From the NCBI GenBank assembly GCA_022749755.1, contig CM040440.1:10651269-10715268 (forward strand): a stretch of DNA of 64,000 nt. The letters are read 5' to 3'. Shown piece by piece: positions 1-52,880 of the stretch. Under the pieces are notes generated by a model that saw only the letters and a program-made list of their open reading frames with translations, searched no databases and was not told the DNA's origin. The first letter of the stretch is position 1. Each line of letters opens with the position of its first letter. The position numbers and the translations under genes were made by a program. The stretch comes from Azadirachta indica. Its lineage: Eukaryota; Streptophyta; Magnoliopsida; Sapindales; Meliaceae.

Positions 1-600
1 ATGATTCAAAAATATCTCTTAAATTTATAATTTACTAAAAAATGATAATTATATCCTTATTTACAGGTAGTTAGTTAAGAAAATTATTTTTAAACTTCTA
101 AATAAAAATAAATATAATAATAGTGATAAAATTATTTTGTAGCATATTGGTAATTAAATGTCTATTAATTTATTATAACTAAAAAATACGTTTATTTTAT
201 TTTATAATATATTAACAAATCAATATTAATTATGTATTAGAAATTAAATAAAATAAAGCATAAATAAATATCAACTCTTTTAATAAAAAATAAAGTTATA
301 AAATAAAAATACAAATCATATTTATACACAGTTAGAATATGTATAATATAATAAAAATAAATATATTATAATTTATTATATAAATAAATTTTAAATAAAA
401 ATATATTACATTTTATCAAATTTAAAAAAAAATTTAATTATTTTTTTTATAAGATATAATTTTTACTTTTTAATAAATTGGAATTTCAATGTATATTTTA
501 AAATCATTACAACTAATTAATCTAATTGACTAAACTTTAAAGACGAGAACAGAATCAAAAACTTATTACAATTGAACAAACTATTTTACTTTTTGAAAAA
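1..600. other. AT-rich intergenic spacer
   Basis: Very AT-rich sequence with many short A/T runs. I see no open reading frame, tRNA-like fold or clear terminal repeat in it. Composition shifts to a more mixed base content near 600, where the upstream region of the PHD-finger gene begins. Confidence 0.6.
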
Positions 601-1023
601 TGAAACACCTTGGGGGCCGTATTGTTATTATTCCATGGCCAATCCCAATCGCTTCCGTCAAAGATCAATCCAGCCAATCTCTACCGTTAGATCATCCAAC
701 TAGAACAGATCTCAACTAATGTACGGACTAGCAACAAACAGACAAATCCTTGTAGACAACATCAACTGCTTAGCCGTAGAGAATTACCTCGGACAGAATA
801 AGAGTTTAATAGACGGAGAGCAAAGCAAAGCAAAGAACACGTTCGCGAAGGGGAATATATATATTAGCAAGCAAGACAAGAAGAAAGAACATAACAGAGT
901 CTTGTATCTTAAACTCTAGCGTGGACTTTGGAAGTTTCTTAATACTCTCATTTTGGTTGCTGTTGATGTTGCTGCGTTGCTTCGGTTGATGGGTTAAGGT
1001 GGTCTTTTTGTTTTAAAAATATT
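600..1023 (+). promoter_or_regulatory. Upstream region / 5' UTR of the PHD-finger gene
   Basis: This 420-bp stretch separates AT-rich spacer from the proposed start codon and is less AT-rich than its flank. It contains a CCAAT-like sequence near 640 and a short TATATATA run near 856-864. A 66-codon open frame (719-919) has no recognisable content and probably lies in the 5' leader. The transcription start cannot be fixed from sequence alone. Confidence 0.35.
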
Positions 1024-3979: not shown

Positions 3980-4025
<46 letters not shown>

Positions 4026-7000
4026 TGGAGGGCGAGATGTTACAATTCATTTTTATGTCTCAGATATTGCATGCGTGTAAAAATGGACAAGATTCCTGAA
4101 GCAGATTGGACATGCGAAGAATGCATGCTAACTGAAGAAACCAGAAAGCATATGCAAGATAAATTGGAACATTCTGTAGCTAATGTATCAAGTCAATCAT
4201 CCTTGCATAGAACAAAGGAAAGTGTAGGAAGTTCAAGTGTTCACAAGTATAAGAATAGTCTGAAAATGGGTGTTAAAGCTTTGAGTGTTGAGAGAATAAG
4301 ATCAAGTAAAGTTAAGTCAAATCCATACGTCTCTTCTAAGAGATCTGCGGCCTGTTTAGAAGCTGTCCCAGTAACAAAAAGAAGGGTGTTCGAGAGCATC
4401 AAACATTCTGGGTTTTCAAGGCCCTTGAACAAAACATGTTTGAATTCTTCATTTGAGAACTTCAATAAGGGGGAAATTAAGCAAACTCCTGACTTAAATA
4501 TATCCGGTGACCACTTGTCTGATCAGAATTTAGGAGTGGGCGATCAATCATATAAATTGCAGCCAGAGAATCAAATCTCACCGGGTAACTTTTTCTCCAT
4601 GACTCTCAGGCAGATGTTCTGTGTTGTTTCACTTGTTGTAATTGACCGAGTTTTATGTTTTTGGATTTACAGGTTCTCTCCTTGAGTCAGAGTCATTTAA
4701 GATAATGGACTCAAAAGGTAAAGTCCTGCCAATGGAGGGAGGTGTTTTAAAACAGAATTGTGCTAGAGAAACTGCTGTTGTTAACAATAAAGAGGCACGA
4801 GGAGCTGACAGAACGATGAAGTCTATGTCATTGAGTAATCCCATCCCAACCCACAGGAATGCTTCTGACTCAACAGTTGTTAACTGTCATTCTAATTTTT
4901 CTCGCGGTGAGAATTTGAAGAACAGAGCTAAAGAACAGAGCTCAAGTGATTCTGAGTGTACTTCAAAAATTCATAATCCTTTAGTTAGTTCAATGGTGGT
5001 TGGCGCTGGTGTTAACACACCGATGACTGATGATAAGGGTGCTCGTGGTAAAATTATTTTACCTCTCTCTTCTGGATCCATTTACCATGGTCTGGAGGAT
5101 GGCCAGAATCCTGTGAAATCAAATGAAAAATTGCCTTGGGTTTTGGCCACTCCATCTACAATTTCTGTTGTTCCACAACTTAATTACAGATGGAAGTATG
5201 GTCTTTCGTTCTCTACTCATATTTTTAATGTTGTTCAATAATGTTATTTCCACTCCTGTTGTCGAGATAGTCTCATGCATGAATTTCTGACATGTTATGC
5301 AGAGGTGAGTTTGAAATTCAGGGAGGTGGAGGACTTCCACGCACTTGTAATGGAATTCAAGCTCACTTATCATCTTGTACTTCGCCTAAAGTTCTTGAAG
5401 TAGTTCAGAAACTTCCTCAAAAAATTCTATTGGAGGAGGTTCCTCGCTTAAAGAAGTGGCCAGCTCAATTTCTGGAAAACCATGCAACTGAGGATAACAT
5501 TGCTCTATATTTCTTTGCATGCAATGTTGAGAGGTATGTCAAGTCATTTCTTTGTGATTGTAGTATGGACTTTCATGCTGACAGTTTGCTGATTTTATCA
5601 TTTGCCGTATGAAGCTATGAAAGGGGCTACAAGGATTTCCTGGAGTGCATGATTCAGAATGATTTAACTCTCAAAGGAAATGTTGATGAACTTGAGCTAC
5701 TAATATTTCCATCAAACCTGCTTTCAGAAAATTCCCAACGTAAGCATTGACACTTTAATGATTTTCATTTTGAAGATAAAGTTTTTTGTGTGGATCTGCA
5801 ATGTCAAAGAAATAATACCTTTTCTGGGCTGAAAATTTTAAAATTTGTTGATGGCAGGTTGGAATAAGAAGTTGTTTTTATGGGCTGTGCTTAGAGGAAG
5901 CAGAGCTAACTGTTCATCAGAACTGCCAGTTTTGCAAAAAACAATTGGTATTTGTAGCAGGAATGAAGATCAACTACACGAAAACAGACATCTGTCTGAT
6001 TTTCCCACCTTTGCTTCTCAGAACTTGTGTTCTTCTGGACGTTCCAATGAAAGTTTATCTGCTGGTAGCCCGTCATACAATGCACATCAAAGAACAAACT
6101 TGCTTACCTCGTTAGAACCACTTGCTTCTGGAAGAATGGATGAGATTTGTGGATCCAAAGAATTGTCTACTGAGGACAGGTTGGTTAATTTGCAAACAAG
6201 TCTCATCATCCAAGACAGCAGAGTTTACATTGCCAAAACTCAGCAAGCTAGAGATATGCTGCATATGGACTCATTCAAGGTAACAATTTTTTCGATGAGC
6301 TTGTCACAAATTTTCCTTTCGTACCTCTTTATTCTTGCAATTAGCTTTATATTACTTTATATCTTCTCTGTGACTATATGGTTTATGTATGCATGGAAAA
6401 TATTTGGAAACTCAGAACAAATGTTATATAATTTTTTTTCTCCTTCTGTAAATCAAATTTGATAAACATATAGAGAGTTGCGGTTAAGAAATTCAATGAA
6501 TTAGAAAAGCTAATATCTTGAGCAATGATGTTTTGCAGTGTAGTGCTTGAATATATCTTTAAAATTGCAATTAAAGATTTGATTGTAGGAAGGACAGGTC
6601 ATGTAATCTGGACCATGCTTCTTTCTGTTATTTATGGCAAGTTTGCTTGATGTGGTGTGGAGATTGATTTCATTGGCTTAGATATCATTGTTTATTAGTT
6701 TTGAAGAAGAAAAATATCTTCGTCATTAACTGAAACGTGGTTTATTTGTTTCTTCGTAGATTTATGTGGAGATGGGTCATTGGTAATATCAATATTATTG
6801 TTTCGAAAAATGGGCACCTCTTTTGTAGGCCTTGAGAATCAGTTGGAGTTTGTAGTAACTTTACTAACATGTTATTGTCCTTCCAGCAGAGAGAAGATAG
6901 AGATTCTATGAGAGGGCGGATATTTCACCATTTTGTAAACACAGAAAGTGAATGTAATATGGATGGCGCAAGGGTTGATGAAGAAAGGGAAAATAAGAGA

Positions 7001-7522
7001 TTGAAGAGTTGTTTCAATAGAATGGATGGAGTTAATTTTTCCAAAGAGATGAAGTATATGGGCGAGACGTTTTCAACTGGAATAAATAGCCTTGGTTCGA
7101 CTTTTACAACCAAGAACCACATACCTGACAGAACTTATGATGTGCCAATATCTTCCACCAATTTTGCTTCAAAAAATAGTTGGATGGGTTTTAAGTCTCT
7201 GCAGCAACAAGTAATCTTACACAATGGTTCGGATCCCTTGGATTCCAGGTTTCCAGATCTCGAGCTTTCACTTGGGGTTAGAAACAAACCTGCAAAACAA
7301 AGACTCATGCCACTGTTTGGAGCAGAAGATCGTCAACATATGCTGGATAAGTCTTCAAAAACGTTGGTAAGTGCGAAAAGAGATGAGGGTGAATCCTCAG
7401 TATGCCTCTCTTTATCGCTTGCCTTACCTTGTTCCGGCAAGGAGCAAGTGTCAAATCCTTGTTCAGGATCAGAGCTCCAGCTGCCTGAGTGGTCTGGAGT
7501 GAATACCTCACTGTCTTTATAG
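1024..7522 (+). CDS. PHD-finger protein, AIPP2/PAIPP2-like (11 exons, about 1254 aa)
   Basis: Gene model by splice signals and phase: exons 1024-1092, 1477-1563, 2343-3122, 3215-3499, 3792-3877, 4064-4584, 4673-5195, 5303-5533, 5615-5739, 5858-6279 and 6887-7522, total 3765 nt with no internal stop. A PHD finger at about residues 408-456 shows the C4HC3 pattern (C411, C414, C426, C429, H435, C438, C453, C456; start VCDICGDAGREDLL). Residues about 780-918 (GEFEIQGGG to KKLFLWAVLRG) resemble the conserved C-terminal SPOC-like block of plant AIPP2-type proteins. The C-terminus has DLELSLG and LSLSLAL, both fitting the LxLxL (EAR) repression pattern. In Arabidopsis AIPP2/PAIPP2 act in the nucleus as histone readers in a BAH-PHD-CPL2 repression complex; the same role here is inference. 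The N-terminus (MRKGKFRNVKELYGSNGE) fits the start choice. Weakest points are exons 2 and 3. The only large intact spliced gene in the window. Confidence 0.85.
3587..3635. repeat. GC/CA/CATA microsatellite in intron 4
   Basis: A compound simple repeat: alternating GC, then CA, then CATA/CATTA units. It lies in the intron between exons 4 and 5 of the PHD gene. Alternating purine-pyrimidine sequence like this can adopt Z-DNA in vitro; there is no sign of function here. Confidence 0.85.
3980..4025. repeat. (TC)n(TA)n microsatellite in intron 5
   Basis: About 13 TC units run directly into about 10 TA units, 40 bp upstream of the exon 6 acceptor of the PHD gene. The TC half forms a long pyrimidine tract close to the 3' splice site. 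Likely length-polymorphic. Confidence 0.9.
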
Positions 7523-29624: not shown

Positions 29625-30119
29625 CTAAATGAAGCTACGACATATTGGGCATCTAAGTTCACCCAACAACCATCTGTTGATACACTCGGAATGATAAACA
29701 TGTTTGCAAACTGGGAGAACCCTATACAAGTCGCCCCTCACAAATTCCTCCAGGCAAATGGCACAGCAAGTGCTACTTAATTTCATGTTACTGTCGACGT
29801 CGATATCGTATTTCTCAGGCGGAGGAAACTTTGCTATTGCCTCTTCCCTTCGACGTCTCGGCGTCTGCGGCTGCATCCACAGCCCCAAATATTCCCACAG
29901 ATTCAAGAACAGTTCATGAATGTTGTCCACTGCATCGGCGCCAGTATTCTCTGCTGTTTCGTTGTTAGTTGTCTGCCGTTGTTGATGCGTCCGTAGATAT
30001 AAGTTGCGTGTGCAGAGGATTATGTCGAAGAGCCAAATTAGGAGCAACAACACGAGGGCAATGGTTATGATATAAAGAAGCACAATCTCAATTATCTGGT
30101 GACTGAAAGTGAGAGCCAT
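29625..30119 (-). CDS. Membrane-anchored RING-H2 zinc finger protein (putative E3 ubiquitin ligase, ATL-like)
   Basis: Single-exon 164-aa protein. One hydrophobic segment at about residues 9-35 suggests an N-terminal membrane anchor. The RING-H2 domain is at residues 119-160: C-x2-C-x15-C-x-H-x2-H-x2-C-x10-C-x2-C, starting CAICLEEF and ending CPICR, with LPVCKH and W after the sixth ligand as in plant ATL proteins. Spacing matches the ATL consensus exactly, so the fold is probably intact and E2-binding. A basic stretch (RRRREE) lies before the domain. ATL genes are usually intronless, as here. Substrate and pathway cannot be read from sequence. The start codon is the first ATG, just before the hydrophobic segment. 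The gene sits between transposon remnants with no close neighbour. Confidence 0.85.
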   Translation of the reverse strand: MALTFSHQIIEIVLLYIITIALVLLLLIWLFDIILCTRNLYLRTHQQRQTTNNETAENTGADAVDNIHELFLNLWEYLGLWMQPQTPRRRREEAIAKFPPPEKYDIDVDSNMKLSSTCCAICLEEFVRGDLYRVLPVCKHVYHSECINRWLLGELRCPICRSFI

Positions 30120-30178
30120 TGGATTAATTCTGAAGAAGAGAGCGTTTCATTTTCTTTTTCAGGTTTTTAAATAGTTAC

Positions 30179-34894: not shown

Positions 34895-37800
34895 CTAAGG
34901 AACAAAGTGGAATTTCACATATTTGAAAATAATATTGGATAAATCAAGAGGGATGTGTACTACAACACTCACTTCCCTTTCTTTACAAGCAACAAATGTC
35001 CCCATCATAATAGGGCTATACTTTCTCCAACCCTTTTGGAGAGCTTTGATAATTTTTACAAGATTTCCCCAACAGCCAACAGCTTTTCTTGTTGGCAATG
35101 AGCTTCCTTAGTGGCTTTTTCTATGTCATCCATTCTCATTTGCCCATGTATTCCTTATTAGTACTTTACATTCTTTAGAATGGAACTCATTTAAGATATC
35201 TTCTTTTCTTTCATGACTGAAATACCCTTGGTTACCTTTCAATTCACCATAGCCCCTTGGTTACTAATTTAAAGAAAGCAATGGGTTTGCCTTCCTAACT
35301 TAAAACAGCTCCAATTCTAACATTAGAAACATCACATTCAACTTAAAAATTTCTGCTAAAGTCTAGAAGTGCAAGTATAAGGGCTTCAGTTACCTTTTTC
35401 TTTAAAACTTCAAAACTCATTTGTGCTTGACCTGTCCACTTGAATAAATTAGCTTTCAAGCATTCAGTGACAGAAGCAACAATGGTGCTGAAACCTTTGA
35501 TGAATCGTTGGCAAAACAACATTAATCCATGAAAGATTCGAATGTAATGAAGCATTGAAGATGTTGGCCAAGATATAATAGCTTCTACCTGATTTGGATC
35601 CATCTAAATTCCTTTGCTAGACACCATATAGCCTAAGAAGATTAGGTTGTCAGTAAGGAAGCTACATTTCTTCAAATTTGCATACAATTTTTACTCTTGT
35701 AATGTGCTTAAAACCATGTAAAGATGTTGCAAGTGTTGTTGCTCATCCTTGTTATATACAAGAATGTCATCAAAATATACAACAACAAACTTTCCAATGA
35801 AAGCCTTAAAAAAATATGATTCATAAGGCACATAAAAGTACTAGCCGCATTAGAAAGACCAAAAGGCATAACCATCCATTCGTAAAGTTCGTTGCGAGTT
35901 TTAAAGGCTATCTTGCATTCATTTCCCAATCTTACTCTTATTTGATGGTAACCACTTTGAAGATCAAAATTAGAAAAAATTGTAGCTCTATGTAATTGGT
36001 TAAGTAGGTCATTAAGTCGAGGGATAGGAAAGCAATAATCGATTGTGATTTTTTTTACCGCTTTATTATCAACACACATATGCCAAGAGCCATTAGATTT
36101 GAGCACTAAAAGGGCAGGAACAACACATGGACTCATGTTCTCCCTTATCAAACCTTTAGCCATAACTTCATCAACTTACCACTGTAGCTTTTTGTGTTAT
36201 TTTGGGCTCATTTTATAGGCTGCTTTGTTGGGTAAAAGAGCTTCGGGAACAAAATCAATGCAACGCTAAATGTCCCTTATAAAAGGAAGACCTGGTGGTA
36301 TTTCATTTGGGATCACATCTTCAAATTCTCGAAGTAGACCTTTCATTAATAATGGATGTTCTATGCTTTCTGTATTTTCTTCCAAAACAAAAAGAACACA
36401 AATGTTGCCACTCTCTTTTGCCTCCTTTTCAAACCTAGAAAGAATAAGAAAAGTGTTTCCCTCATTTTTGATAGGGTTAATAGCACCTTTCATCTCAAAA
36501 GGATTTAGAATAATCTTAACACCATCCTTTTTAAAAGAGTAAGTGTTTTAAAACCATCATGCATAGCCTTTCTATCATATTGCTAAGGACGCCCAAAAAT
36601 TAAACGACAAGCATCCATCGAGATTACATCACACAAAATTTCATCTTGATATTTTTCCCAATAAAAAATGAAACAAGCAGCATTTGTTTACCTTAGTTTC
36701 ATTTCCTTTTTGCAGCCAAGATAGCTTGTAAGGATCTAGATGTGCTTTCGTTTTAAGCTTTAATTTATCCACCATCTTAATAAAAATAACATCTTCAAAG
36801 CTACCACTATCAGTGATAACATCACACACCTTACCATGAGATGTGCATCTTGTAAGAAAAATGTTCTTCCTCAGCTAATCATCGTCATCTTCTTTATGGT
36901 TAGCATTTAAAACCCTTCGAGTAAAGAGAGATCCACTTTGATCTCCATAAGTTTCTTTTTCTTCCTCTTCTGAGTAGTTTTCGTCTTTAGCCATTGTATA
37001 AGCTTTATTGTTTTGTTCTCCTTCTTCAATAAGGGTTACAATTCTACAGTTTGGACAACCTGAAACAATATACCAATTCCTTGATATTTAAAGCATGTAT
37101 GCAAGTGTTGGTTTTAGATAAGGCCAACGGTTGCTTATTTCCGCTTCCTTTTGTTATCTTCTTGAGAGTTGATGTTGTCACTGCATTAGGCGTAGCATTT
37201 GAAGAAGTTGTTTGCTTAGAGCGATTATTAGAATAGCTTCCTCTTATTGAAAAATGCATATTTGTGTTGCATACCTCTTTTAATTGCTTCTCAACATTTA
37301 AAGCTAGTTTATACACATCATTGTAGCTCCAATAAGGTTGTAGATGCACTATATTTCCAATTTTTGGTCGCAATCCTTCTAAATAATGAGCTATTATTTG
37401 TTCTTTTGGCTTGACAATGTCGTACTTCAAAATAAAGTGATTAAATTTAATATTATATTCTTCCACGGAAAGATTTGTTTGCTTGAAATTATGAAATTTC
37501 AAGAAAATATCTTGTCCGTAATTATCTGGTAAGTATTTCGAATTGAGCTCCCTCTTTATCTTTTCCTAAGTGACAATTTTTTCTCTTTCTTCATGTGATC
37601 TTTGTATCTTGAGATTTTAACACCATAAGGATGCATGATTCTTCAACTTGATGGCAACAAGCTTTACCTTTATATGCTCAAGAATATCCTTGAACTCAAA
37701 AATTCATTCAATGATGTGAAGCTAATCAACAAACTCTTCCGATTACATGCTTTCTTCGAAATCTAGAATATCAACTTTCATATTGAAATATTTTTCAAAA

Positions 37801-41678: not shown

Positions 41679-41683
41679 ATAAC
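41679..41683. other. Target site duplication of the Athila-like composite (left copy)
   Basis: Plus-strand ataac, identical to 52881-52885. In Tat (minus) sense it is gttat. Removing one copy plus the insert restores the frame RKLCPFFLTAKVILLTNQ in Tat RNase H. Confidence 0.85.
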
Positions 41684-43703
41684 TGATGAATGTTTAAAAG
41701 TATAGGTTTATCAAGAGAAATATTATGATTTACACTTAATAATGTCCTTCTATTCCCCAATAATGAAGCATATTCCTTTATATTGAATTGTAAAACATGA
41801 ATTGCACTAAATAGTTGATTTTGCGCAGGTTTCGTATAATGAGCGTATCTTTCAATCTAAATAATCAATTGATACGATTCTTAGGTTGGACAAGCATAAA
41901 CTCATCATTTCACAACTTTGTAAGCCAAAGGTTGGACCAGTTCGAGCAATTAATGGGACAAAATTGGGCTTCAACAGAACTCAAGCGCATATTTGAACCA
42001 ACCCAACATGCTTCTGTATTTGGGCCGTATGTCCATAAATACATAACAAAAAATTATATGGTTAGGTGATCTAGAAAGTTGAGAAAGGGATCTAAATTGT
42101 TTATATTTTGCACTATCTCAAATTTCAACTGGTCAGTAAAGGAGTTATAATTCTAGAAGGGCGGTAAAGAAATGCAACTTGAACATCTCTATCTTTTTTC
42201 AACACAACTCACGGTCTAAAATAGCAATAAGAGTGAAATATGGATCATTAGAAAGATGAGTCATTCTCCTACAACTTTAAAGAAGGCTATTTTACAACAT
42301 TCGATGGTTTTCATAATCAAAGATATGTTGGAAGTTGGCAGAGCGAGATTAATTGGAAATTGACAAAATTATGTTCACACATGTGAAATATCTTTTATTT
42401 TACCTATATAAAGGAAGATGTAGAAGTGAGAAGGGGAGGAGTTTGTTTTCCATTTCTATTTTCTTTTTGTAATTTTAACTTTAATTAAATGATGTATTTC
42501 TAATTTTGTAATTAGGGTTAAGGATGAATTTTTGATGATTTTATAGTTTTGTTCTTTGATCCTTTGTTTTGTTCTTCATTGTCAATATTTTTATTGATTG
42601 AATACTATATTTTGCAAGTAATTTTAAATTGTTAGAAATCTTGATTCATTGTTAACAAATGGTACATTAAATACTTGGACGTTTTCTACATATCAAGAGT
42701 AAGGCAACTTATAGTTTTTCACCATCAACTAAAAGGTAAGTCTTTTGATTTCTTTGTGCTTAAATATTTTTTTTTTAATCATCCAATTAAGATCACTTCT
42801 TTTGATTCTTAATTTTTTTCTTTAAAAAAAAAGATCAAGAATAAATTCTATACAAATCATTAAAATAGATCCCTAATGCCCTAATATATAATAATATTGA
42901 ATTTAAATTTGATAATAAGCAAATTCATTCCATTTATTATAATATTTGAATATTTGGACTTATAATATTTAAACTTTTGGACTTGTTGACCTTATGTAAC
43001 CTGTTTCCTGTGGACCGACACTCGGACTTTTAAACTTTATTACTTGATATAACCTATACTTGAGAGTTACAATCTTTAAGTAGTGAGCTTTGGGCTAATA
43101 ACTCCCAGACCAGTTGGCCTTAGGATATTAGATGTTAAAACACCTCTACAGGCTTAATTACTCGAGTTAAGGCTATAAACTTATTCATACCAAAATTTTA
43201 CCGTTTTATGCGAACATTCACTACTGATTAGGCAAAAAGCCCGGTTACTAAGTAAAAACTTCGGTTAAAATTTTTATTTATTTTTTTTTCTACTTTTTTT
43301 TTGGAGATTTTCTTTTATTATTATTATTATTTTTTTTACCCTTAGTGGCTACCTTTTACAAAATAAAAGAGGTCAAATATTGTAAAATTCTAATATGTCA
43401 TCCACAATCATGTATCAAAGTGTGTGTGTGAAAGATGGTTTATAAATACTTTATTGATTGAGTATTTAAGCAAAATTTGTAATATGATGATGATATGAGA
43501 GTTCATAAATTTGATCAATTCAAAACAAAGTGAATGATAAATCCTTTGTTATGAATTCAAAAATCAAAACAAATGATAATACATATCTACTAAGATGTGT
43601 CTAAGGAGTAAGATTACTCCTTACTCTACCATCCTTACAAATTATGAATCTATTTTTTTTTAGTTGTATATATAAAAAAAAATGGTTACTTATGTCAACT
43701 ACA
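41684..43703 (-). repeat. Athila-like 3' LTR, 2020 bp
   Basis: Minus-sense start TGTAGTTGACATAAGTAACC directly after the polypurine tract (43704-43715), end ACATTCATCA at the TSD. TG/CA termini and length suit Athila. It contains a GTGTCGGTCCACAGGAAAC block near 43010-43030, similar to sequence in other Athila-type elements. An 84-codon frame (41815-42069) is inside it and has no known features. No second full LTR exists in the window. Confidence 0.75.
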
Positions 43704-43889
43704 CTCCCCCCAACCAGGTTGCAACATTGTCCCCAGTGTTTGAATATAAAGAGGTACAGTATAGAGAACATTACCTGAAATAGTAGTTATTGAAACACAA
43801 GTAAAATCTGAAACAAATTTAAGCAAAAATAAGAAAATGCAATGAGTAAAAAAAAGAGAAAAGAAAAGTTACAAATGAAGCAACAAATC

Positions 43890-44517
43890 CAACTTTCGCT
43901 TTTACTGCTTTCACTTGACCATTCTAATCGTGCCATTGTTGGATCTGATTCATGGACAAAGTTTTGCAACTGATTAATCAAGTCATTAGCAGTTAGAGCA
44001 GAAACGAGGAGTTTACGAGCCATCTGTGAAATAAAATTATGTTCTACAGCATGATCAAGAAAGACAACAACTTGTTAAAGAAACCATTAATATTTAACAA
44101 TCCTATGGGTTTTTGGTGAATGACGAGTTGTGCCCAAGATGCAACTTGAAAAATTTCCTCTTAAGTCCCAATATCACCTGGTAAGGCAATAAAAGCATCT
44201 GCAAAATCAAGTATTTTAGCAATTCTTTCATGCATTGTTGAGACCATTAGTTCTTCTCCAACAGTTTTGCCAGTTATGTTGCTTGCAGATAAAGCCTGTA
44301 GTATGATACCTATAACTTCACTTTCTCCTACATGTGCGGCAGTTGACACACACCTCATTAACCCAAAGCTACCTCCTCCATATACTAGGTTAAGTTTTTG
44401 CTCAGTTAAAAGTCGACCCAAGTTTTTCGCTGCTTTTACAAACTCTTCACCTTTCTTAGAGCTTGATCCACAAAAAATACAAATAGTTTTAAATTGATGA
44501 ATAGAAACTCCTTCCAT
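43890..44517 (-). pseudogene. LOG cytokinin-activating enzyme retrocopy, left arm
   Basis: LONELY GUY proteins are cytosolic/nuclear phosphoribohydrolases that release active cytokinin bases from riboside monophosphates. The copy starts at ATG 44517 and reads TICIFCGSSSKKGEEF, NLVYGGGSFGLM and STAAHVGESEVIGII, then MVSTMHERIAK and DAFIALPGDIGT, where a stop replaces residue 119 inside the PGGxGTxxE active-site motif; the second G of PGG is also changed to D. The rest ([20 protein letters not shown], then FISQMARKLL) is present after the stop, with a 1-nt deletion near 44060 and a shifted C-terminus. It has no introns, whereas plant LOG genes are multi-exon, so it is a processed copy. It lies between integrase and the polypurine tract. 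Confidence 0.85.
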
Positions 44518-44609
44518 TTTTTGCAGTCTTCTACCCTTATCAGTGATTCAAATTTTGTATAAAAATAAAGAAGTGAGGTCCTGTATTTATAAAACTTAAA
44601 AAGAATGCA

Positions 44610-45098
44610 TTAAAGTCAGATTCCCAAGACTATAGCGATCATGTTCTTTTTGAAATAATGTATACAAGTTGAGAATTTCACGTTGCACATATCCACTAGG
44701 ATGCGTCTCAAGAGTCAATAGGATATGATTTAAAAACTCCTTACTTAGTCCATCCTTAATGAATTTAATTTTATCTTCTCTATTAGTAAACACCATCCCT
44801 AAAGAACAACATCATTTGTTACAGGTTGAACGTGTACATTTGTTAAACACTTGTAACTTTTTCGCTCTTCGTTTCTTTGCAAAAGAGCTCTTACCTAAAT
44901 CAGGCATGCGTGAAACAAATGAATCAGAAAACTCACTTGCTACACATACCTTTACTTCAATTATCCACCGCATATCTTCAGCAGTACCTTTTTGCATAAG
45001 CATTCTTAATCTTGCACACCTAGCTTGGTACATTTTTCGTAGAACATCTTAAGAAAAGAAGGAAAATATGTTTCCAATTTAGAAAGAATGACATTCAT
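44610..45098 (-). pseudogene. Cys-rich ORF of unknown function, left-arm copy
   Basis: Equivalent of the right-arm ORF at 51174-51722. The start MNVILSKLETYFPSF is followed by a frameshift, then RCARLRMLMQKG and KSSFAKKRRAKKLQVF. The first Cys of the CxxC pair is replaced, and a stop follows CNK. The C-terminal part is lost in the deletion that also removes the LOG upstream region. Confidence 0.7.
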
Positions 45099-45309
45099 AA
45101 TGAAAAAAAAAAAAGAAAAAATAGAAAAAGAAGTGAGAAAAAAATTTGGTATCAGTAATTTTGGGCAACTGAAAGAACCAACTTAAAGAGTCAAGGAGTA
45201 CCGTTTTCCACCACTTGACCAGAAAGTAACTAAAAACAAGCAATGGAATCAATAAAATTAATAACACAAGAAAACAAGTAATGTATATACAATTAAAAAA
45301 AAAATCATC

Positions 45310-48300
45310 CAGTGTTGTAAACAGGTTCATTCAAAGTGATAGACTTTAGTTCGCTTGAAAAATTCTCAAAGAATGGCTTTAAACGGTGTCCATTAACTTT
45401 AAAAACATTACCATTTTTGGGGTTATCAATCTCAACAGTGCCATGTGGTTAAACCTTCTTAACAATGAAAGAACTTGTCCATTTTGAACAAAATTTGATA
45501 GGAAATAGATGCAATCTTGAATCATAAAAAAGAATTTTTTGTGAAGGTTCAAATGATTTTCTAATGATATGTTTATCATGAAATACCTTTATTTTTTCTT
45601 TGTAAATTTTAAAATTCTCGTAAGCTTCATTCCTAATTTCTTCAAGTTCATCTATTTGGAGTTTTATCAATGATCCTACTTTATCTAAGTTAAAATTAAG
45701 CATTTTAATGGCCCAAAAATCTTTATGTTCCAATTTCACAGGTAGGTGACAAGCCTTTCCAAAAACAAGTCTATAAGAAAACATGCTAAGTGTTGATTTA
45801 AAAGCAGTTCAATAAGCCCAAAGTGCATCGGTTAGTCTTAAAGACCAATTCTTACTATTCGGGTTTACAGTTTTTTCCAAAATCGTTTTATTTCTCTATT
45901 GGTAAGTTCAACTTGTCCACTTGATTGTGGGTGATAAGGGGTAGACACTTTATGTGTAATTCCGTATTTTTTCATTAAATTCTCAAAAGGTTTATTACAA
46001 AAGTGTAAACCTCCATCACTTATTATGGCTCGAGGCAATCCAAATCTTGAAAAATGTTTTCTTTCAAAAATTTCAAAACAATTTTATGATCATTATTTTT
46101 GCAAGAAATTAACTCTACTCATTTTGAAATATAGTCAACTCCAACTAAAATGTATTGATACCCAAGAGAAGAGGGAAAAGGACCCATAAAATCAATACCC
46201 CAACAATCAATATTTCAATGACTAAAATAGAATTTAATGGCGTCATGTTTCTACGAGTTATTCCACTTAATTTTTCACAACAGTCACATGTTTTACAAAA
46301 TGTATGTGTGTCTTAAAATAAGGTGAGTCAATAAAATCCACATTGCAATATTTTTGTAGCAGTTTTCTTTGAAGAAAAATGACCACCACATGCTTCAAAG
46401 TGACAAAAAGAAATGATATTTTGAATTTCATTGTTAGGTACACTTCTCCTTATAATTTGGTCAGGACAATATTTGAAAAGATATGGATCATCCCAAAAGA
46501 AATTGCGTACCTCCCTTAAAAATTTCTTTTTGTCTTGAGCATTCCAATGATTTGGCATTTGACCTGTAACAAGAAAATTGACAATATCAGTAAACCAAGG
46601 TAAAATAGAAACATTAAAAAATTGCTCATCAGGAAAATTGTCATTAACTGGTGTTGTCTCAATCAGTTCTTCAAGCATAAGTCTTGACAAGTGATCAGCA
46701 ACCACATTTTGTACTCCTTTTTTATCTTAAATTGTAAGATCAAATTTTTGGAGTAATAGGATCCACCTAATCAATCTACGTTTAGCATCCTTTTTTGAGA
46801 GAAGATATTTTAATGCTGCATGATCATTAAAAATCACAATAGGTGAGCCAACAAGATAAGATCGAAATTTATCCAATGCAAATACTATTGCAAGTAATTC
46901 CTTTTCAGTGGTAGAATAATTCATTTGAGCACCATTTAAGGTTTTACTAGCATAGTAAATCACATAGGGTTTCTTGTCCTTTCGTTGTCCTAAAACAGCT
47001 CCAACAGCATAATCGCTGGTATCACACATGATTTCAAAAAGCAAAGTCCAATTTGAAGGCTGCATGATAAGAGTAGATGGTAGCATGGTTTTAAGTTTGA
47101 CAAAAACTTCTTGACACGACTCAGTCCACTCAAAGAGAACACCTTTTAATAACAAATTGCACAACGGTCTTGATATAACACTAAAGTTTTTGATAAATCT
47201 CCTATAAAAATCAGCATGTTCTAAAAATGATCTAACATCTTTGAAAGACTTAGGAACAAGTAAATTAGTAATTAATTTAATTTTAGATTTATCTCCTTCA
47301 ATTCCTTTTGATGAGACAATGTGACCAAGCACAATACCATTTATGACCAAGAAATAGCATTTTTCCTAATTAAGCACAAGATTCTTTTCTTCACACCTGA
47401 TCAAAACTTTTTTCAAGTTAGATAAGCAATCATCAAATGAATCACCAAAAACAGAAAAATCATCCATGAAAACTTCAAGAAATCGTTCAACCATACCACT
47501 AAAAATACTAAGCATGCATGTTTGAAATGTAGCTGGTGCATTACATAATCCAAATGGCATCCTTCTATATGTAAAAGTTCTAAACGGATAAGTGAAAGTG
47601 GTCTTTTCTTGGTCTTCAGGTGCAATTTCAATTTAGTTATACTCAAAATACCCATCTAGGAAACAATAAAATGCTATCCAGCTACCCTTTCTAACATTTG
47701 ATCCATGAATGGTAACGAAAAATGGTCTTTCCTAGTCAATGAATTGAGTTTCCTATAGTCAATGCACATTCTCTAGCCAGTAATTGTTTTAGTTGGAATT
47801 AATTCATTATTTTCATTTTGACTACAATAACTCCAGATTTCTTAGGTACAACTTGTGTAGGATTTACCCATGCTATTAGAAATAGGATAAATGATCCCTA
47901 CATCTAAAAGTTTAAGAACTTTATTGCATTTATCTAAATGATTTGGCATTATCTTCCAAATATATCTTATGTGTGCAAATCAAAGGACTAATTCCTTTTA
48001 TGTCAGCTATTGTCCATCATAAGGCATGTTTATGCAATCTTAAAATTTCGAACAACTTACATTCTTAAAGAGCATTGAGTCTAGAAGAAATTATCACCGG
48101 AAAAGTTTCATTAGTACCCAACAAAGCATACTTGAGTCAGATGGTAATGGTTTCCATTCAAGTCTTGGTGGTTGAACACTCGATGGCATCGATTTATCAA
48201 TACGTTGAGATAAGTCTTCAAATTTTGGTCTCCATCCATTAACTTCCAAAACCTGAGAAGATTTTAAAAGAGAATAAATATGAGATACTTCAAGATTTTC

Positions 48301-49005
48301 GTCAAAATTGAAATCATTGCAACCATTTAAACAAGCATTCAAGGATCAAAAAAAGATGAAACATTAAAGCAGTCATGAACGAGTTCTTCAATATAACTAA
48401 CTTGATGCATGTCATTATTTTCACTAGGTTGCTTGCAAATATTGAACACATTCATTTCCAATGTCATGTTTCTAAAGGATAATTTTAGAACTCCATTTTT
48501 ACAGTTGATTATTGCATTAGATGTAATAAGAAATGGACATTCTAATATGATAGGAATTTGGGTGCTTGAGTTAGGAACAGGTTGTGTATCTAAGACAATA
48601 AAATATATGGGAAAGTAAAATTTATCTACTTGAACTAACACATCCTCAAGTATTTCTCGTGGTATTTTTACAGAATGATCAGCAAGTTGAAGTGTTGTAG
48701 AAGTAAGTTTAAGCTTACCTAAACCTAATTGCTCATACACTGAATATGGCAACAAATTAACACTTGCACCAAGATCAAGTAAAGCATGGTTTATCCTAAA
48801 GTTTTCAATTACACAAGAAATGGTGGGACAACTAGGATCTTTATATTATGGTGGAGTGTTATATTGGATAATTGAACTAACATTCTCAGTTAAAAATACT
48901 TTCTTTTGAACATTAAGCTTCCTTTTAACAGTGCATAAATCTTTCAAAAATTTGGCATAAGAAGGAACTTGCTTGATTGCATCTAATAAAGGAATGTTAA
49001 TTTTG
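45310..49005 (-). pseudogene. Athila-like end of gag, protease, RT, RNase H, integrase, left arm and spacer
   Basis: Minus order: late gag (KVKINIPLLDAIKQVPSYAK, 49005), protease DLGASVNLLPYSVYEQLGLG near 48780-48720, RT (RMCIDYRKLNSLTRKDHF near 47770, then MPFGLCNAPATFQTCM and VFMDDFSVFGDSF at 47560-47440), RNase H ([20 protein letters not shown], then [18 protein letters not shown] near 46960-46850), integrase (CGGHFSSKKTA near 46385; [20 protein letters not shown] near 46150), and C-terminus [12 protein letters not shown], then GHRLKPFFENFSSELKS to 45310. Several stops and frameshifts, but long stretches remain open. Confidence 0.8.
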
Positions 49006-49016
49006 ACTTAATACCC

Positions 49017-50972
49017 GTTCTTAAGTTTGTCAAAAATGTTAGATCATTTTTAGGACATGCTGGTTTTTATAGGAGATTTATCAAAAATTTTAGTGTTATA
49101 TGAAGACCGTTGTGCAATCTGTTATTAAAAGGTGTTCTCTTTGAGTGGACTGAGTCGTGTCAAGAAACTTTTGTCAAACTTAAAACCATACTAACATCTG
49201 CTCCTATTATGCAGCCTCCAAATTGGACTTTGCCTTTTGAAATCATGTGTGATATCAGCGATTATGCTGTTAAAGCTGTTTTAGGACAACGAAAGGACAA
49301 GAAACCCTATGTGATTTACTATGCTAGTAAAACCTTAAATAGTACTCAAATAAATTATTCTACCACTGAAAAAGAATTACTTGCAATAGTATTTGCATTG
49401 GATAAATTTCAATCTTATCTTGTTGGCTCACCCATTGTGAGTTTTAGTGATCATGCAGCATTAAAATATCTTCTCTCTAAAAAGGATGCTAAATCTAGAT
49501 TGATTAGGTGGATCCTACTACTCCAAGAATTTGATCTCACAATTCAAGATAAAAAAGGAGTATAAAATATGGTTGCTGATCACTTGTCAAGACTTATGTT
49601 TGAAGAACCGATTGAGACAACACCAATTAATGACAATTTTTCTGATGAGCAACTTTTCAATGTTTCTATTTTACCTTGGTTTGCTGATATTGTCAATTTT
49701 CTTGTTGCAGGTCAAATGTCAAATCATTGGAATGCTCAAGATAAAAAGAAATTTTTAAGGGAGGTACGCAATTTCTTTTGGGATGATTCATATCTTTTCA
49801 AATATTACCCTGACCAAAATATAAGGAGATGTGTACCTAACAATGAAATTCAAAATATCATTTTTTTTTGTCATTCTAAAGCATGTGGTGGTCATTTTTC
49901 TTTAAAAAAAATTGCTGCGAAAATCTTACAATGTGGATTTTATTGGCCCACCTTATTTAAAGACACACATACATTTTGTAAAACATGTGATTGTTGTCAA
50001 AAATTAGGTGGAACAACTTGTAGAAACATAATGCCATTAAATCCTATTCTAATTATTAAAATATTTGATTGTTGAGGTATTGATTTTATGGGTCTTTTTC
50101 CTTCTTCTTTTGGGTATCAATACACTTTAGTTGGAGTTGACTATGTTTCAAAATGGGTAGAGGCAATTTCTTACAAAAATAATGATCATAAAATTGTTTT
50201 GAAATTTTTAAAAGAAAACATTTTTTCAACATTTGGAGTGCCTCGAGCCATAATAATTGATGAAGGTTTACACTTTTGTAATAAGCCTTTTCAGAATTTA
50301 ATGAAAAAATACGGAATTACACATAAAGTATCTACCCCTTATCACCTACAAGCAAGTAGACAAGTTGAATTTGTCAATAGAAAAATAAAATACATTTTGG
50401 AAAAAACAGTAAACCCGAATTGTAAGGATTGGTCATTAAGACTAACCGATGCACTTTGAGCTCATCAAACTGCTTTTAAATCATCACTTGGCATGTCTCC
50501 TTATAAACTTGTTTTTGGAAAGACTTGTCACCTACCTGTAGAATTGGAACATAAAGCTTTTTGGGCCATTAAAATGCTTAATTTTGACTTAGATAAAACA
50601 GGATCATTGAGAAAACTCCAAGTAAATGAACTCGAAGAAATTAGGAATGAAACTTACGAGAATTCTAAAATTTACAAAGAAAAAATGAAGGTGTTTCATG
50701 ATAAACATATCATTAGAAAATCATTTGAACCTTCACAAAAATTTCTTTTGTGTGATTCAAGATTGCATCTATTTCCTGGCAAACTTCGTTCAAAATGGAC
50801 AGGTCCTTTCATTGTTAAGAAGGTTTACCCACATGGCGCTGTTGAGATTGAGAACCCCAAAAATGGTAATGTTTTTAAAGTTAATGGACACCGTTTAAAG
50901 CCATTCTGTGAGAATTTTTCAAGTGAGCTAGAGTCTATCACTTTGAATGAACCTGTTTACAACACTAGATGA
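49017..50972 (+). pseudogene. Athila-like RT end, RNase H, integrase, right arm
   Basis: Begins abruptly in the RT connection ([20 protein letters not shown]), with no upstream RT, protease or gag. RNase H runs 49110-49565. Integrase follows at 49569-50972: the HHCC zinc region (CGGHFSLKKIA ... CKTCDCCQKLG), core GVDYVSKWVEAIS and [14 protein letters not shown] (catalytic Asp), HLQASRQVEFVNRKIK (catalytic Glu block), and C-terminal [18 protein letters not shown]. Only two or three in-frame stops interrupt it (after 49565, near 50073, near 50460), so it is much less decayed than the gypsy-1 pieces. Confidence 0.85.
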
Positions 50973-51173
50973 TTTTTTTTTTGTATATACATTACTTGTT
51001 TTCTTGTGTTATTAATTTTTTTTATTCCATTGTTTGTTTTTAGTTACTTTCCCGGTCAAGTGGCGGATAACGGTACTCTGTGACTCTTCAAGTCAGTTCT
51101 TTCAATTGCTCAAGATTACTGATACAACTTTTTTTTCTCACTTCTTTTTCTGTTCTTTTCTTTTTTTTTCATT

Positions 51174-51722
51174 ATGGATGTCATTCTTTCTAGATTGCAA
51201 ACATATTTTCCTTCTTTTCCTAAAGATGTTCTACGAAAAATGTACCAAGTTAGGTGTGCAAGATTAAGAATACTTATGCAAAAAGGTATTCCTGAAGATG
51301 TGCGGTGGATAATTGAAGTAAAGATATATTTAGCAGGTGAGTTTTCTAATTCATTTGTTTCATGCATGCCTGATTTAGATAAGAGCTCTTTTGCAAAGAA
51401 ACGAAGAGCGAAAAAGTTACAAGTGTGTCACAAATGTACACATTCAACCTGTAGCAAGCGATGTCGTTCTCTAGGGATGGTGTTTACTAATAAAGAAGAT
51501 AAAATTAAATTCATCAAGCATGGACTGAGTAAGGAGTCTTTAAATAATATCTTATTGACTCTTGAGACGCATCCTAGTAGATATGTGCAACGTGAAATTC
51601 TAAATTTGTATACTCTATTTCAAAAAGAACGTGATCGTTATAGTTTTGGGAATCTGACTTTAAAAGATCTTGTTTTCCAATTTGTAAGAAAAATGGATAG
51701 GAAGCCAATCCTCGACTCATAG
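51174..51722 (+). CDS. Cys-rich ORF of unknown function in the Athila-like element, right arm (182 aa)
   Basis: I do not recognise this protein. It is an intact open frame between integrase (ends 50972) and the LOG copy, and is present in both arms, so it belongs to the element family. Visible features: an N-terminal segment with QTYFPSFPKDVLRKMYQVRC, a basic patch FAKKRRAKK, then C-x2-C-x4-C-x3-C (CHKCTHSTCSKRC), which could bind zinc, and a C-terminal part with TLETHPSRYVQREILNLYTL. No signal peptide or membrane segment is seen, which argues against an envelope-like protein. It may be another captured host sequence or a family-specific factor. Start is the first ATG after a T-rich tract. 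Confidence 0.55.
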   Translation: MDVILSRLQTYFPSFPKDVLRKMYQVRCARLRILMQKGIPEDVRWIIEVKIYLAGEFSNSFVSCMPDLDKSSFAKKRRAKKLQVCHKCTHSTCSKRCRSLGMVFTNKEDKIKFIKHGLSKESLNNILLTLETHPSRYVQREILNLYTLFQKERDRYSFGNLTLKDLVFQFVRKMDRKPILDS

Positions 51723-52021
51723 AAGGCGTTGAAGCCATTACTGAACGTAAAATCAGAGGAAGATGTGAGCCACAATCACAACTATCTGTAAATATTTATT
51801 TTTAGCTGTCATTGTTGAAATTTTTATGTTTTAGATTCCTATATTAGCTGTTATCTTTGACATTTTTATATTTTTTTAAATTTTAACTTTTATGACAACA
51901 GCTGGCTTACCTCTATTGGTTTCATTAATGCATTCTCTTTAAGTTGTATAAATGCAGGACCTCACTTTTTTATTTTCATACAAAATTTGAATCACTGATA
52001 AAGGTAAAAGATTGCAAAAAG
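51723..52021 (+). other. Region upstream of the right-arm LOG copy, possible captured 5' sequence
   Basis: About 300 bp, AT-rich, without an ORF. It includes GTATAAATGCAG near 51946-51957, about 70 bp before the LOG start, which looks like a TATA-type core element. The left arm keeps only the last ~95 bp of it. It could be captured LOG leader sequence or native element sequence. Confidence 0.4.
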
Positions 52022-52643
52022 ATGGAAGGAGCTTCTATTCATCAATTTAAAACTATTTGTATTTTTTGTGGATCAAGCTCTGGGAAAGGTGAAGAGTTTG
52101 TAAGAGCAGCGGACAACGCGGGTCGAGTTTTAGTTGAGCGAAAACTTAACCTTATATATGAAGGAGGTAGCCTTGGGTTAATGAAGTGTGTATCAACTGC
52201 CGCACATGTAGGAGGAAGTGAAGTCATAGGTATCATACCAAAAGCTTTATCTGCAGGTAACATAACTGACAAAACAGTTGGAGAAGAATTAATGGTCTCA
52301 ACAATGCATGAAAGAATTTATTACCTTACTAGGTTGTTTTGGGACCTTAGAGGAAATTTTTCAAGTTGCATCTTGAGCACAACTTATCATTCACCAAAAA
52401 CCCATAGGATTGTTAAATGTTAATGGTTTCTTTAACAAGTTGTTGTCTTTTCTTGATCATGCTGTAGAACAGAATTTTATCTCACAAATGGCTCGTAAAC
52501 TCTTCATTTCTGCTCCAACTGCTAATGACTTGATCAATCAGTTGCAGAACTTTGTCTATGAACCAAATCCAATAATGGCACGATTAAAATGGTCAAGTGA
52601 AAGCAGTAAAAAGCGAAAGCTGGATTTATCACTTCATTTGTAA
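52022..52643 (+). pseudogene. LOG cytokinin-activating enzyme retrocopy, right arm
   Basis: Starts at ATG 52022 and keeps TICIFCGSSSGKGEEFV, LNLIYEGGSLGLM (first G of the GGG motif changed to E) and STAAHVGGSEVIGIIPKAL. After MVSTMHERI about 14 codons are deleted with a frameshift. The active-site region is partly recoverable in another frame as LLGCFGTLEEIF, then a W-to-stop change. The C-terminal third is open (52410-52643): [18 protein letters not shown], then MARKLFISAPTANDLINQL, ending KKRKLDLSLHL. It is intronless like the left copy but broken by different lesions, so their common ancestor was probably an intact reading frame. No active enzyme is expected from this locus. Confidence 0.85.
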
Positions 52644-52794
52644 CTTTTCTTATCTATTTTTTCTTCTCATTGCATTTTATTATTTTTGCTTAAATTTGTT
52701 TCAGGTTTTACTTGTGTTTCAATAACTACTATCTCAAGTAATATTCTCTATACTGTACCTCTTTACATTCAAACATTGGGGACAATGTTGCAAT

Positions 52795-52880
52795 CTGGTT
52801 GGGGGAAGTGTAGTTGACATAAGTAAACCATTTTTTTTTAATATACAACTAAAAAAAAATAGTTGCTTATGTCAACTATA
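52795..52880 (+). repeat. Polypurine tract and 72-bp palindromic LTR tip
   Basis: ACATTGGGGACAATGTTGC (from about 52774) and GGTTGGGGGAAG precede TGTAGTTGACATAAGTAAAC at 52809, the start of the LTR as in the left arm. After about 50 bp, at an A9 run, it turns into the complement of the same LTR start (TTGCTTATGTCAACTATA) and ends at the TSD. The tip is therefore two LTR starts joined head to head. Confidence 0.8.

What the first reader, a model, noticed from the sequence alone, without database searches (positions are those of the whole stretch)
43890..52643. LONELY GUY (LOG) gene captured by an Athila-like retrotransposon
Both arms carry an intronless LOG homologue (CGSSS, GGGSxGLM, HERIAK, PGGxGT-EE region) at the site between integrase and polypurine tract where Athila elements usually carry an env-like ORF. 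LOG makes active cytokinin in one step, so an intact copy would have been a hormone-activating passenger. The copies carry different lesions (stop and G-to-D in the left; deletion, frameshift and stop in the right), so the captured frame was probably intact when the arms separated. I know of no description of this combination.
Basis: partly seen in the sequence, partly recalled or inferred. Interest (0 to 1): 0.9.

Follow-up and report, generated by a model that had tools for sequence, protein, structure and literature searches.

The report
Retrotransposon carrying two borrowed genes
A high-copy jumping gene of flowering plants carries a relative of a hormone-activating plant enzyme and, next to it, a gene resembling a plant-virus protein that blocks RNA silencing; the two copies in this window are broken remnants.

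Summary
Both arms carry an intronless LOG homologue downstream of an Athila-like integrase. It is family-wide: the window's genome has at least 150 LOG matches, 128 of them with the element's integrase or ORF-X upstream on the same strand. One copy is a complete element with 1.4 kb LTRs, a 5-bp target duplication and an open LOG.

Three additions. (1) LOG in Gypsy elements of Citrus and poplar is already in print (PMC9289625). (2) A second gene, ORF-X, sits between integrase and LOG and matches betaflexivirus nucleic-acid-binding/silencing-suppressor families (84 of 84 members hit Carla_C4 at E<=1, best 1.5e-8); its dN/dS is 0.25 against another source's element. (3) The carried LOG is remodelled: catalytic Arg and Glu kept in 113 of 120, pocket Lys absent in 109 of 120, LxLxL tail in 73 of 89 full-length proteins. 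It is probably not a plain cytokinin activator.

Most likely an old two-gene accessory module of a eudicot retrotransposon lineage. Function is inferred; within-genome selection tests were uninformative.

The parts
41679..43088 (+). LTR of the element family, + orientation, directly beside the inverted left arm
   Evidence: 88.7% identical over 1,424 columns to the 5' LTR of the complete copy on contig C14
43080..43891 (-). 3' untranslated part of the left-arm element
   Evidence: 43080-43778 is 88% identical to the 3' region of another copy, L074:2-717; the rest by position
43892..44517 (-). Left-arm LOG-family gene, broken (in-frame stop, later frame change)
   Evidence: PF03641 E=3.4e-12 for the part before the stop; At2g37210 structure E=8.7e-45; own-genome hit
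44608..45069 (-). Left-arm counterpart of ORF-X (virus-type nucleic-acid-binding protein), broken
   Evidence: 80% identity to right-arm ORF-X residues 11-164 with 2 stops
45311..45817 (-). Left-arm integrase C-terminal part, broken
   Evidence: 82% identity to the right arm with 2 stops
46730..47365 (-). RNase H part of left-arm pol
   Evidence: PF17917 E=1.2e-35, PF17919 E=8e-31
48342..48845 (-). Aspartic-protease part of left-arm pol (present in the left arm only)
   Evidence: PF13650 E=0.0016, 19.5 bits, below its cut-off of 24.3
49005..49017 (.). Junction of the two inverted arms; both elements are 5'-truncated here
   Evidence: ends of the inverted match
49104..49565 (+). RNase H part of right-arm pol
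   Evidence: open frame, inverted match to the left-arm RNase H
49566..50972 (+). Right-arm integrase region (zinc-binding domain 49566-50072, C-terminal part 50460-50972; frame broken between them)
   Evidence: PF17921 E=3.2e-11; C-terminal part has no Pfam hit of its own but 158 matches in the genome
51174..51722 (+). ORF-X, 182 aa, open: basic patch and four-Cys motif, betaflexivirus nucleic-acid-binding type
   Evidence: PF05515 E=1.2e-4 (22.6 bits, cut-off 23) and PF01623 E=0.022 for this copy; 84 of 84 members of A1 hit PF01623 at E<=1, best 1.5e-8; viral fold library
52022..52643 (+). Right-arm LOG-family gene, broken (internal deletion, frame change); tail KKRKLDLSLHL kept
   Evidence: PF03641 E=4.8e-6 and 2.8e-6 for two pieces; translation
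52644..52878 (+). Start of right-arm 3' untranslated part; ends in a short fold-back (52811-52878)
   Evidence: 52733-52859 is 96% identical to L074:1-125; self-inverted match

Best explanation
SHOWN: the window holds two 5'-truncated, inverted, broken members of a high-copy Athila-like Ty3/gypsy family. Its usual gene order is pol (RNase H, integrase), then ORF-X, then LOG, then about 1 kb of 3' sequence, then the LTR. ORF-X belongs by profile to the Cys-rich nucleic-acid-binding proteins of betaflexiviruses. The LOG is an intronless relative of plant LOG that kept the fold and the catalytic Arg/Glu, but in most listed relatives changed the substrate pocket and gained an LxLxL tail, usually after a basic pair. 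Proteins of both kinds occur in rosids and asterids, and ORF-X was under purifying selection. INFERRED: a spliced LOG mRNA was captured long ago by an element lineage of which a relative carries ORF-X without LOG. The pair works as an accessory module that helps the element against the host. ORF-X binds nucleic acid and shields element RNA from silencing, as its viral relatives do. The LOG-like protein acts on a changed nucleotide substrate, or as a nuclear adaptor whose EAR-like tail recruits TOPLESS-type co-repressors, rather than as a plain cytokinin activator.
For: Copies and order: 150 LOG matches scored of 285 candidates, 150 ORF-X of 327, 158 integrase from 975 candidates of which 150 were scored. 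Of 150 LOG matches, 109 have ORF-X upstream (median 464 bp), 94 have integrase (median 1,213 bp), 128 either and 75 both; the wrong-strand control gives 2 and 1; 98 of 150 ORF-X matches have integrase upstream. Complete element: LTR TG..CA of about 1.4 kb, LTRs about 98% identical, ATACC on both sides, PBS-like site after the 5' LTR, open LOG of 216 aa inside; 5 of 5 LTR pairs matched among the 40 listed LTR hits enclose a LOG. LOG: 1,242 proteins at E<=1e-10, 120 listed, named ones from Malvaceae, Melia, Xanthoceras, Populus, Parasponia and Paulownia. Model fold: 2a33 TM 0.95 by target and 0.77 by query length, 1.2 A. Arg98 and Glu121 kept in 113 of 120, Lys99 absent in 109 of 120, residue 124 not Glu in 109 of 120; LxLxL end in 73 of 89 full-length, 67 of them after a basic pair. 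CgLOG work names the matching Arg, Glu and Lys as needed for activity (PMC4979012 passages). ORF-X: of the 84 members of A1, window copy included, 84 hit PF01623 and 83 hit PF05515 at E<=1, best 1.5e-8 and 5.7e-9; 105 of 107 relatives carry PF01623 in the database's own annotation. In the viral fold library 14 of the top 19 hits are named silencing suppressors or nucleic-acid/RNA-binding proteins of plant viruses that I know as betaflexiviruses. dN/dS against L077 is 0.25 for ORF-X and 0.12 for integrase, with shifted-frame controls of 1.1-2.2.
Against: The viral fold matches are individually weak (best E=0.038, none at E<=0.001, TM about 0.15-0.4) and the ORF-X model is of medium confidence (pLDDT 67.7, pTM 0.35). 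The window's own ORF-X falls just under Pfam's cut-off. The Cys spacing, C-x2-C-x4/5-C-x3/4-C (80 of 84), is shorter than the carlavirus spacing that I recall. A search with the ORF-X core listed 120 of 622 proteins; none bore the name of a virus, though one Parasponia protein is named 'Viral nucleic acid binding'. In this genome dN/dS among copies is 0.66 (LOG), 0.80 (ORF-X) and 0.58 (integrase), with +1-frame controls near 0.4, and a singleton/shared test shows nothing in frame. So recent copies give no evidence of selection on any of the three genes, and LOG itself has no deep DNA test. L077 shows ORF-X but no LOG-like frame before its purine tract, so LOG is not needed by every relative. 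22 of 150 LOG matches have neither neighbour. LxLxL as an EAR motif is by sequence alone.
Confidence: 0.68

Rival explanations
1. The carried LOG is a true cytokinin-activating enzyme; the element raises active cytokinin in the cells where it is expressed.
For: Fold kept, catalytic Arg/Glu kept in 113 of 120. Nine relatives (P0039, P0040, P0051, P0077, P0079, P0085, P0093, P0112, P0121) keep the canonical Lys and Glu of the pocket and lack the tail.
Against: 109 of 120 lack the pocket Lys whose counterpart in CgLOG was needed for activity, and position 124, part of the proposed prenyl pocket, is Gln or His in 107 of 120.
Confidence: 0.15
2. LOG (and perhaps ORF-X) is a neutral hitchhiker that was spread by element copying and is decaying.
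For: Only 16 of 60 fetched copies have an open LOG of at least 200 aa, and dN/dS among copies in this genome is not lower than +1-frame controls.
Against: Open, motif-keeping LOGs at 55-82% identity to the window's copy occur in several plant orders, though protein databases favour open frames. Integrase, which the element needs, fails the same within-genome tests, so those tests lack power. ORF-X has dN/dS 0.25 at depth.
Confidence: 0.15
3. ORF-X is not of viral kin: a Cys-rich basic protein of the element that resembles NABPs by convergence.
For: The PF01623 match covers mainly a short basic and Cys region, and some members fall below Pfam's cut-offs; the model is of medium confidence; the core search listed no protein of a named virus among the 120 of 622 shown.
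Against: All 84 members hit PF01623 at E<=1 and the best E-values are near 1e-8. The match to PF05515 also spans the helical part before the finger in the window copy (residues 13-122). Of the top 19 in the fold library 14 are named silencing suppressors or nucleic-acid/RNA-binding proteins of betaflexiviruses, 2 are other proteins of such viruses and 3 are unnamed (virus families recalled).
Confidence: 0.2
4. LOG was inserted into one element after it landed, as an ordinary processed copy.
For: Processed-looking LOG copies without element genes nearby exist in this genome (C7:771369, L069).
Against: L069 has a LOG-type C-terminus without the LxLxL tail, whereas element LOGs share position and neighbours in 128 of 150 and 14 of the 16 open ones share the tail.
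Confidence: 0.01

Closest known systems
Gypsy consensuses with a YgdH/LOG domain in Citrus sinensis, C. clementina and Populus trichocarpa (PMC9289625, passages and section 12 read; cites Steinbauerova 2011, not seen)
   Same: LOG-family domain inside plant Ty3/gypsy elements
   Different: Only the domain's presence is reported in what I read: no gene order, no second ORF, no pocket or tail changes, no complete copy
Athila clade with extra 3' ORFs (PMC7264820 part 1 of 3 read; PMC6317226 passages)
   Same: Position of extra sense ORFs between pol and the 3' LTR; 5-bp TSD; no second RNase H domain seen between RNase H and integrase
   Different: Here the ORFs are a virus-type nucleic-acid-binding protein and a LOG, not an env-like ORF; clade membership was not tested by a tree
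Cys-rich nucleic-acid-binding proteins / silencing suppressors of Betaflexiviridae (Pfam PF05515, PF01623; PMC12172455 passages for function of related CRPs)
   Same: Basic patch followed by a four-Cys motif; family-level profile match
   Different: Encoded by a retrotransposon; about 182 aa; shorter Cys spacing than I recall for carlaviruses; activity untested
LOG phosphoribohydrolases (At2g37210, At5g11950, CgLOG)
   Same: Fold, PGGxGTxxE, catalytic Arg and Glu
   Different: Intronless, multi-copy, pocket Lys/His/Glu altered in most, LxLxL C-terminus
Phalaenopsis Gypsy elements with an AlkB-type RNA demethylase (PMC9289625 passages)
   Same: Captured conserved enzyme with a proposed role against host surveillance
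   Different: Other enzyme; elements with Ogre-like features; found there in two Phalaenopsis species only

Membership tests
LTR retrotransposon (Ty3/gypsy) | Paired LTRs with TG..CA ends and a 5-bp TSD around the LOG-bearing unit | tested here: met
   Copy on C14: LTRs about 1.4 kb, about 98% identical, ATACC on both sides; 5 of 5 matched pairs enclose LOG. The window's own copies are truncated.
LTR retrotransposon (Ty3/gypsy) | Order protease-RT-RNase H-integrase | tested here: met
   Left arm protease (weak, below cut-off) then RNase H, right arm RNase H then integrase; L077 integrase core E=2.4e-16
Athila clade | RT/RNase H/integrase group with Athila in a tree | not tested
   No reference set at hand; the name rests on resemblance that I recall
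Athila clade | No additional RNase H domain (marks Tat, PMC6317226 passage) | tested here: inconclusive
   About 92 residues between RNase H end and integrase zinc domain in L077, no RNase H hit there; other positions not examined
Athila clade | Athila ORF-1 (PF03078), present in 16% of Athila elements (PMC6317226 passage) | not tested
   The search could not be answered
LOG phosphoribohydrolase | LOG fold and PGGxGTxxE | tested here: met
   2a33 TM 0.95 by target length; motif columns nearly invariant among 55 relatives
LOG phosphoribohydrolase | Catalytic Arg and Glu | tested here: met
   113 of 120; residue roles from PMC4979012
LOG phosphoribohydrolase | Pocket Lys next to the catalytic Arg | tested here: not met
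   Kept in only 11 of 120; Ile in the window's left arm
LOG phosphoribohydrolase | Cytokinin-releasing activity | not testable with these tools
   needs an enzyme assay
Betaflexivirus-type NABP | Profile match over Pfam cut-off | tested here: met
   L077 33.9 bits, P0169 29.9 and P0195 28.1 bits against PF05515 (cut-off 23); the window copy itself 22.6, P0204 21.8 and P0181 22.3, just below
Betaflexivirus-type NABP | Confident structural match to viral NABPs | tested here: inconclusive
   14 of the top 19 of 31 matches are named such proteins, but all E>=0.038
Betaflexivirus-type NABP | Nucleic-acid binding / silencing suppression | not testable with these tools
   needs an assay

The most novel reading that the evidence does not exclude
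A retrotransposon lineage spread through rosids and asterids assembled a counter-defence kit from two kingdoms of genes: a silencing-suppressor-type protein shared with plant RNA viruses, and a plant cytokinin enzyme turned into a nuclear, co-repressor-binding (EAR-tailed) protein with a new nucleotide pocket. Steps are visible in living sequences: LOG with canonical pocket and no tail (9 of 120), one with canonical pocket and tail (P0081), then changed pocket with tail (68 of 120).
Probability: 0.35. Interest if true: 0.9.

Novelty: new variant of a known kind. Interest (0 to 1): 0.74.

Why it matters
Plant transposons are controlled by small-RNA silencing, and I recall few known anti-silencing proteins of transposons. 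An element with a virus-type suppressor gene under purifying selection would link RNA-virus and retrotransposon counter-defence. It would also bring a hormone enzyme into transposon biology: gene annotations such as 'LOGL10' or 'cytokinin riboside phosphoribohydrolase' in Populus, Melia and others may in part be element proteins, and LOG gene-family surveys would need cleaning. Both proteins are small, can be expressed, and can be tested.

Tried and rejected
Rejected: LOG as a late processed insertion (position and neighbours are family-wide). Rejected: arms as each other's closest kin from one recent event (they are no closer to each other than to others). Rejected: G000 is the Melia azedarach assembly behind P0006 (best own matches 86-87%), which I had first noted as likely; a related Meliaceae such as neem fits size and contig number, but that is my recall, not a test.

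Led nowhere: dN/dS among copies of this genome; viral-contig scans with ORF-X and LOG (no relative confirmed); the third homologue search with the ORF-X core (622 proteins, 120 listed, none of a named virus); papers on carlavirus-type proteins in retrotransposons (none found in the listings); PF03078 search (not completed). The donor LOG clade is unresolved: only two Arabidopsis LOGs were in the tree. Five equal contig lengths in the LOG and ORF-X lists hint at shared contigs but prove nothing.
Full report
WHAT IS THERE. The finding's two arms are real. Left (- strand) and right (+ strand) copies match over 43643-52869 and meet near 49010. Each contains parts of a Ty3/gypsy pol (RNase H in both, a weak protease match in the left arm, integrase in both), then an ORF of 182 codons that I call ORF-X, then an intronless LOG-family gene. 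ORF-X is open in the right arm and broken in the left. Both LOGs are broken. An LTR of the same family lies in + orientation at 41679-43088, against the inverted left arm, and the right end stops in a small fold-back. The arms are 91.2% alike, and some of the 60 fetched copies are closer to each of them. I therefore read the window as two old members, or one old rearranged insertion, of a star-like family; the joining event is not resolved.

THE FAMILY. The window lies in a 280.8 Mb assembly of 21 contigs. There the LOG domain gave 150 scored matches (of 285 candidates), ORF-X 150 (of 327), and the integrase end 158 (150 of 975 candidates scored; not all listed). Of the 150 LOG matches, 109 have ORF-X upstream on the same strand (median 464 bp), 94 the integrase end (median 1,213 bp), 75 both, 128 either and 22 neither; on the wrong strand the same rule finds 2 and 1. 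Of 60 copies fetched, mostly the best-scoring (58 with such a neighbour, 2 without), 16 have an open LOG of at least 200 aa. A copy on contig C14 is a complete element: LTRs of about 1.4 kb with TG..CA ends, about 98% alike, flanked by ATACC on both sides, followed at the 5' LTR by TTTTTGGCGCCGTTGCCGGGGA, which I recall as a tRNA-Asp-type primer site. Its LOG is open (L016) and its ORF-X carries one stop. Of the 40 listed LTR matches (40 of 760 candidates scored), 20 carry the purine tract; 15 of these 20 have a LOG domain within 2.5 kb upstream, and 5 of 5 matched LTR pairs enclose a LOG.

LOG. A search with the left-arm LOG found 1,242 proteins at E<=1e-10; 120 are listed, several of them 90%-clusters with dozens of members (up to 327, in Pterospermum), with named ones from Malvaceae, Melia, Xanthoceras, Populus, Parasponia and Paulownia. 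In a tree with two Arabidopsis LOGs, a processed LOG copy of this genome and a bacterial LOG, the element-type LOGs group together (94/92) apart from the Arabidopsis LOGs and that copy (100/96). With only two cellular plant LOGs this does not name the donor, and long branches may mislead. The model of P0002 has the LOG fold (2a33: 1.2 A, TM 0.95 by target length, 0.77 by query length). In the 120 proteins the catalytic Arg98 and Glu121 are both kept in 113, the Met at 95 in 113 and the Trp at 128 in 119. But Lys99 is kept in only 11 and Glu124 in only 11 (Gln in 70, His in 37), and His96 in 58 (numbering of P0003, one less than CgLOG by the shared motifs). In CgLOG the matching Arg99 and Glu122 are the proposed catalytic residues, Lys100 helps to hold the adenine, and alanine at the tested residues nearly abolished activity with one exception (a Ser); Lys100, His97 and Glu125 are also in the proposed prenyl pocket (PMC4979012, passages seen). 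An LxLxL C-terminus is present in 73 of 89 full-length proteins, after a basic pair in 67 of 89. Nine proteins have canonical Lys and Glu and no tail, one has canonical pocket and tail (P0081), 68 have changed pocket and tail, and 7 full-length ones have a changed pocket without the tail. I read this as a path from a normal LOG to a changed protein. That the nine are element-borne is inferred from the member counts of some of their clusters (39 and 35 for P0112 and P0121). LxLxL as a TOPLESS-binding EAR motif is recalled knowledge.

ORF-X. In Pfam the window copy scores 22.6 bits against Viral_NABP (cut-off 23, E=1.2e-4); of the 84 members of A1, window copy included, 84 hit Carla_C4 (best 1.5e-8) and 83 hit Viral_NABP (best 5.7e-9) at E<=1. 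L077's ORF-X scores 33.9 bits. A search found 107 relatives, including named ones from Acer, Xanthoceras, Citrus, Parasponia and Orobanche; two Orobanche gene models fuse it to LOG (P0210, P0228), and a Citrus model (P0223) runs from ORF-X into LOG-tail sequence. The model is of medium confidence (pLDDT 67.7). The viral structure library gave 31 matches at E<=10, none at E<=0.001; of the first 19, 14 are named silencing suppressors or nucleic-acid/RNA-binding proteins, 2 are other proteins of viruses that I know as betaflexiviruses and 3 are unnamed. Related viral Cys-rich proteins act as silencing suppressors and pathogenicity factors (PMC12172455, passages). Direction of transfer is unknown: virus to element, element to virus, or a shared older source.

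SELECTION. Among copies of this genome dN/dS is 0.66 (LOG, 48 copies), 0.80 (ORF-X, 38) and 0.58 (integrase, 22), while reading the same DNA one base out of frame gives about 0.4, so mutation bias and dead copies swamp the test. A singleton-versus-shared test is also flat for all three genes in frame (one out-of-frame integrase comparison reached p=0.009). A 3.3 kb contig in a bacterial MAG record (L077, which I take for plant contamination) carries integrase and ORF-X at 74% identity but shows no LOG-like frame before its purine tract. Against it, ORF-X has dN/dS 0.25 (38 copies) and integrase 0.12 (22 copies); shifted frames give 1.1-2.2. ORF-X was therefore constrained. For LOG the evidence of constraint is the conservation of frame and motifs across plant orders, in databases that favour open frames.

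WHAT IS KNOWN. PMC9289625 (passages and section 12 read) reports the YgdH/LOG domain in Gypsy consensuses of two Citrus species and, with a looser filter, poplar, and cites Steinbauerova 2011 for an earlier report, which I did not see. A review of extra ORFs (PMC7264820 part 1 of 3) and a survey (PMC6317226 passages) do not, in what I read, mention LOG or NABP; supplements were not open to me. I found no paper on the two-gene module, the virus-type ORF or the LOG changes in the listings of searches. That covers open-licence papers only, and I opened only the papers named in this report and PMC11593424 (passages, no mention of retrotransposons found there).

VERDICT. The element family carries LOG as a stable gene, but this is a new and richer variant of something already noted in print, and the most surprising part is the virus-type neighbour and the remodelling of LOG. 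Mechanism is inferred.

Noticed in passing
L077 (DAIEQH010000041.1), 1-3330: A contig filed under a Candidatus Nomurabacteria MAG encodes Ty3/gypsy integrase and ORF-X of the plant type: probable plant contamination in a public bacterial genome.
   Followed up: partly
G000 C7:771369-771911 (L069), C5:1908281-1908805 (L070): Processed-looking LOG copies without listed element neighbours and with a LOG-type C-terminus lacking LxLxL; the C7 copy appears twice with equal scores (also C7:5951068).
   Followed up: partly
window 52811-52878: The right arm ends in a short fold-back of its own 3' untranslated sequence.
   Followed up: no
window 35708-37565, - strand: Open frames resembling gag and reverse transcriptase of another gypsy-type element (by eye, not searched).
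   Followed up: no
window 29625-30146, - strand: ORF of 173 aa with a RING-H2-like motif, probably an ATL-type E3 ligase gene (by eye, not searched).
   Followed up: no
window 2343-7522, + strand: A run of long frames, one with a PHD-finger-like motif, probably exons of one host gene (by eye, not searched).
   Followed up: no
P0066, P0073, P0087 (Populus); P0006 (Melia): Proteins annotated as LOGL10 or cytokinin riboside phosphoribohydrolase group with element-type LOGs, so LOG gene counts in some genomes may include element genes.
   Followed up: partly
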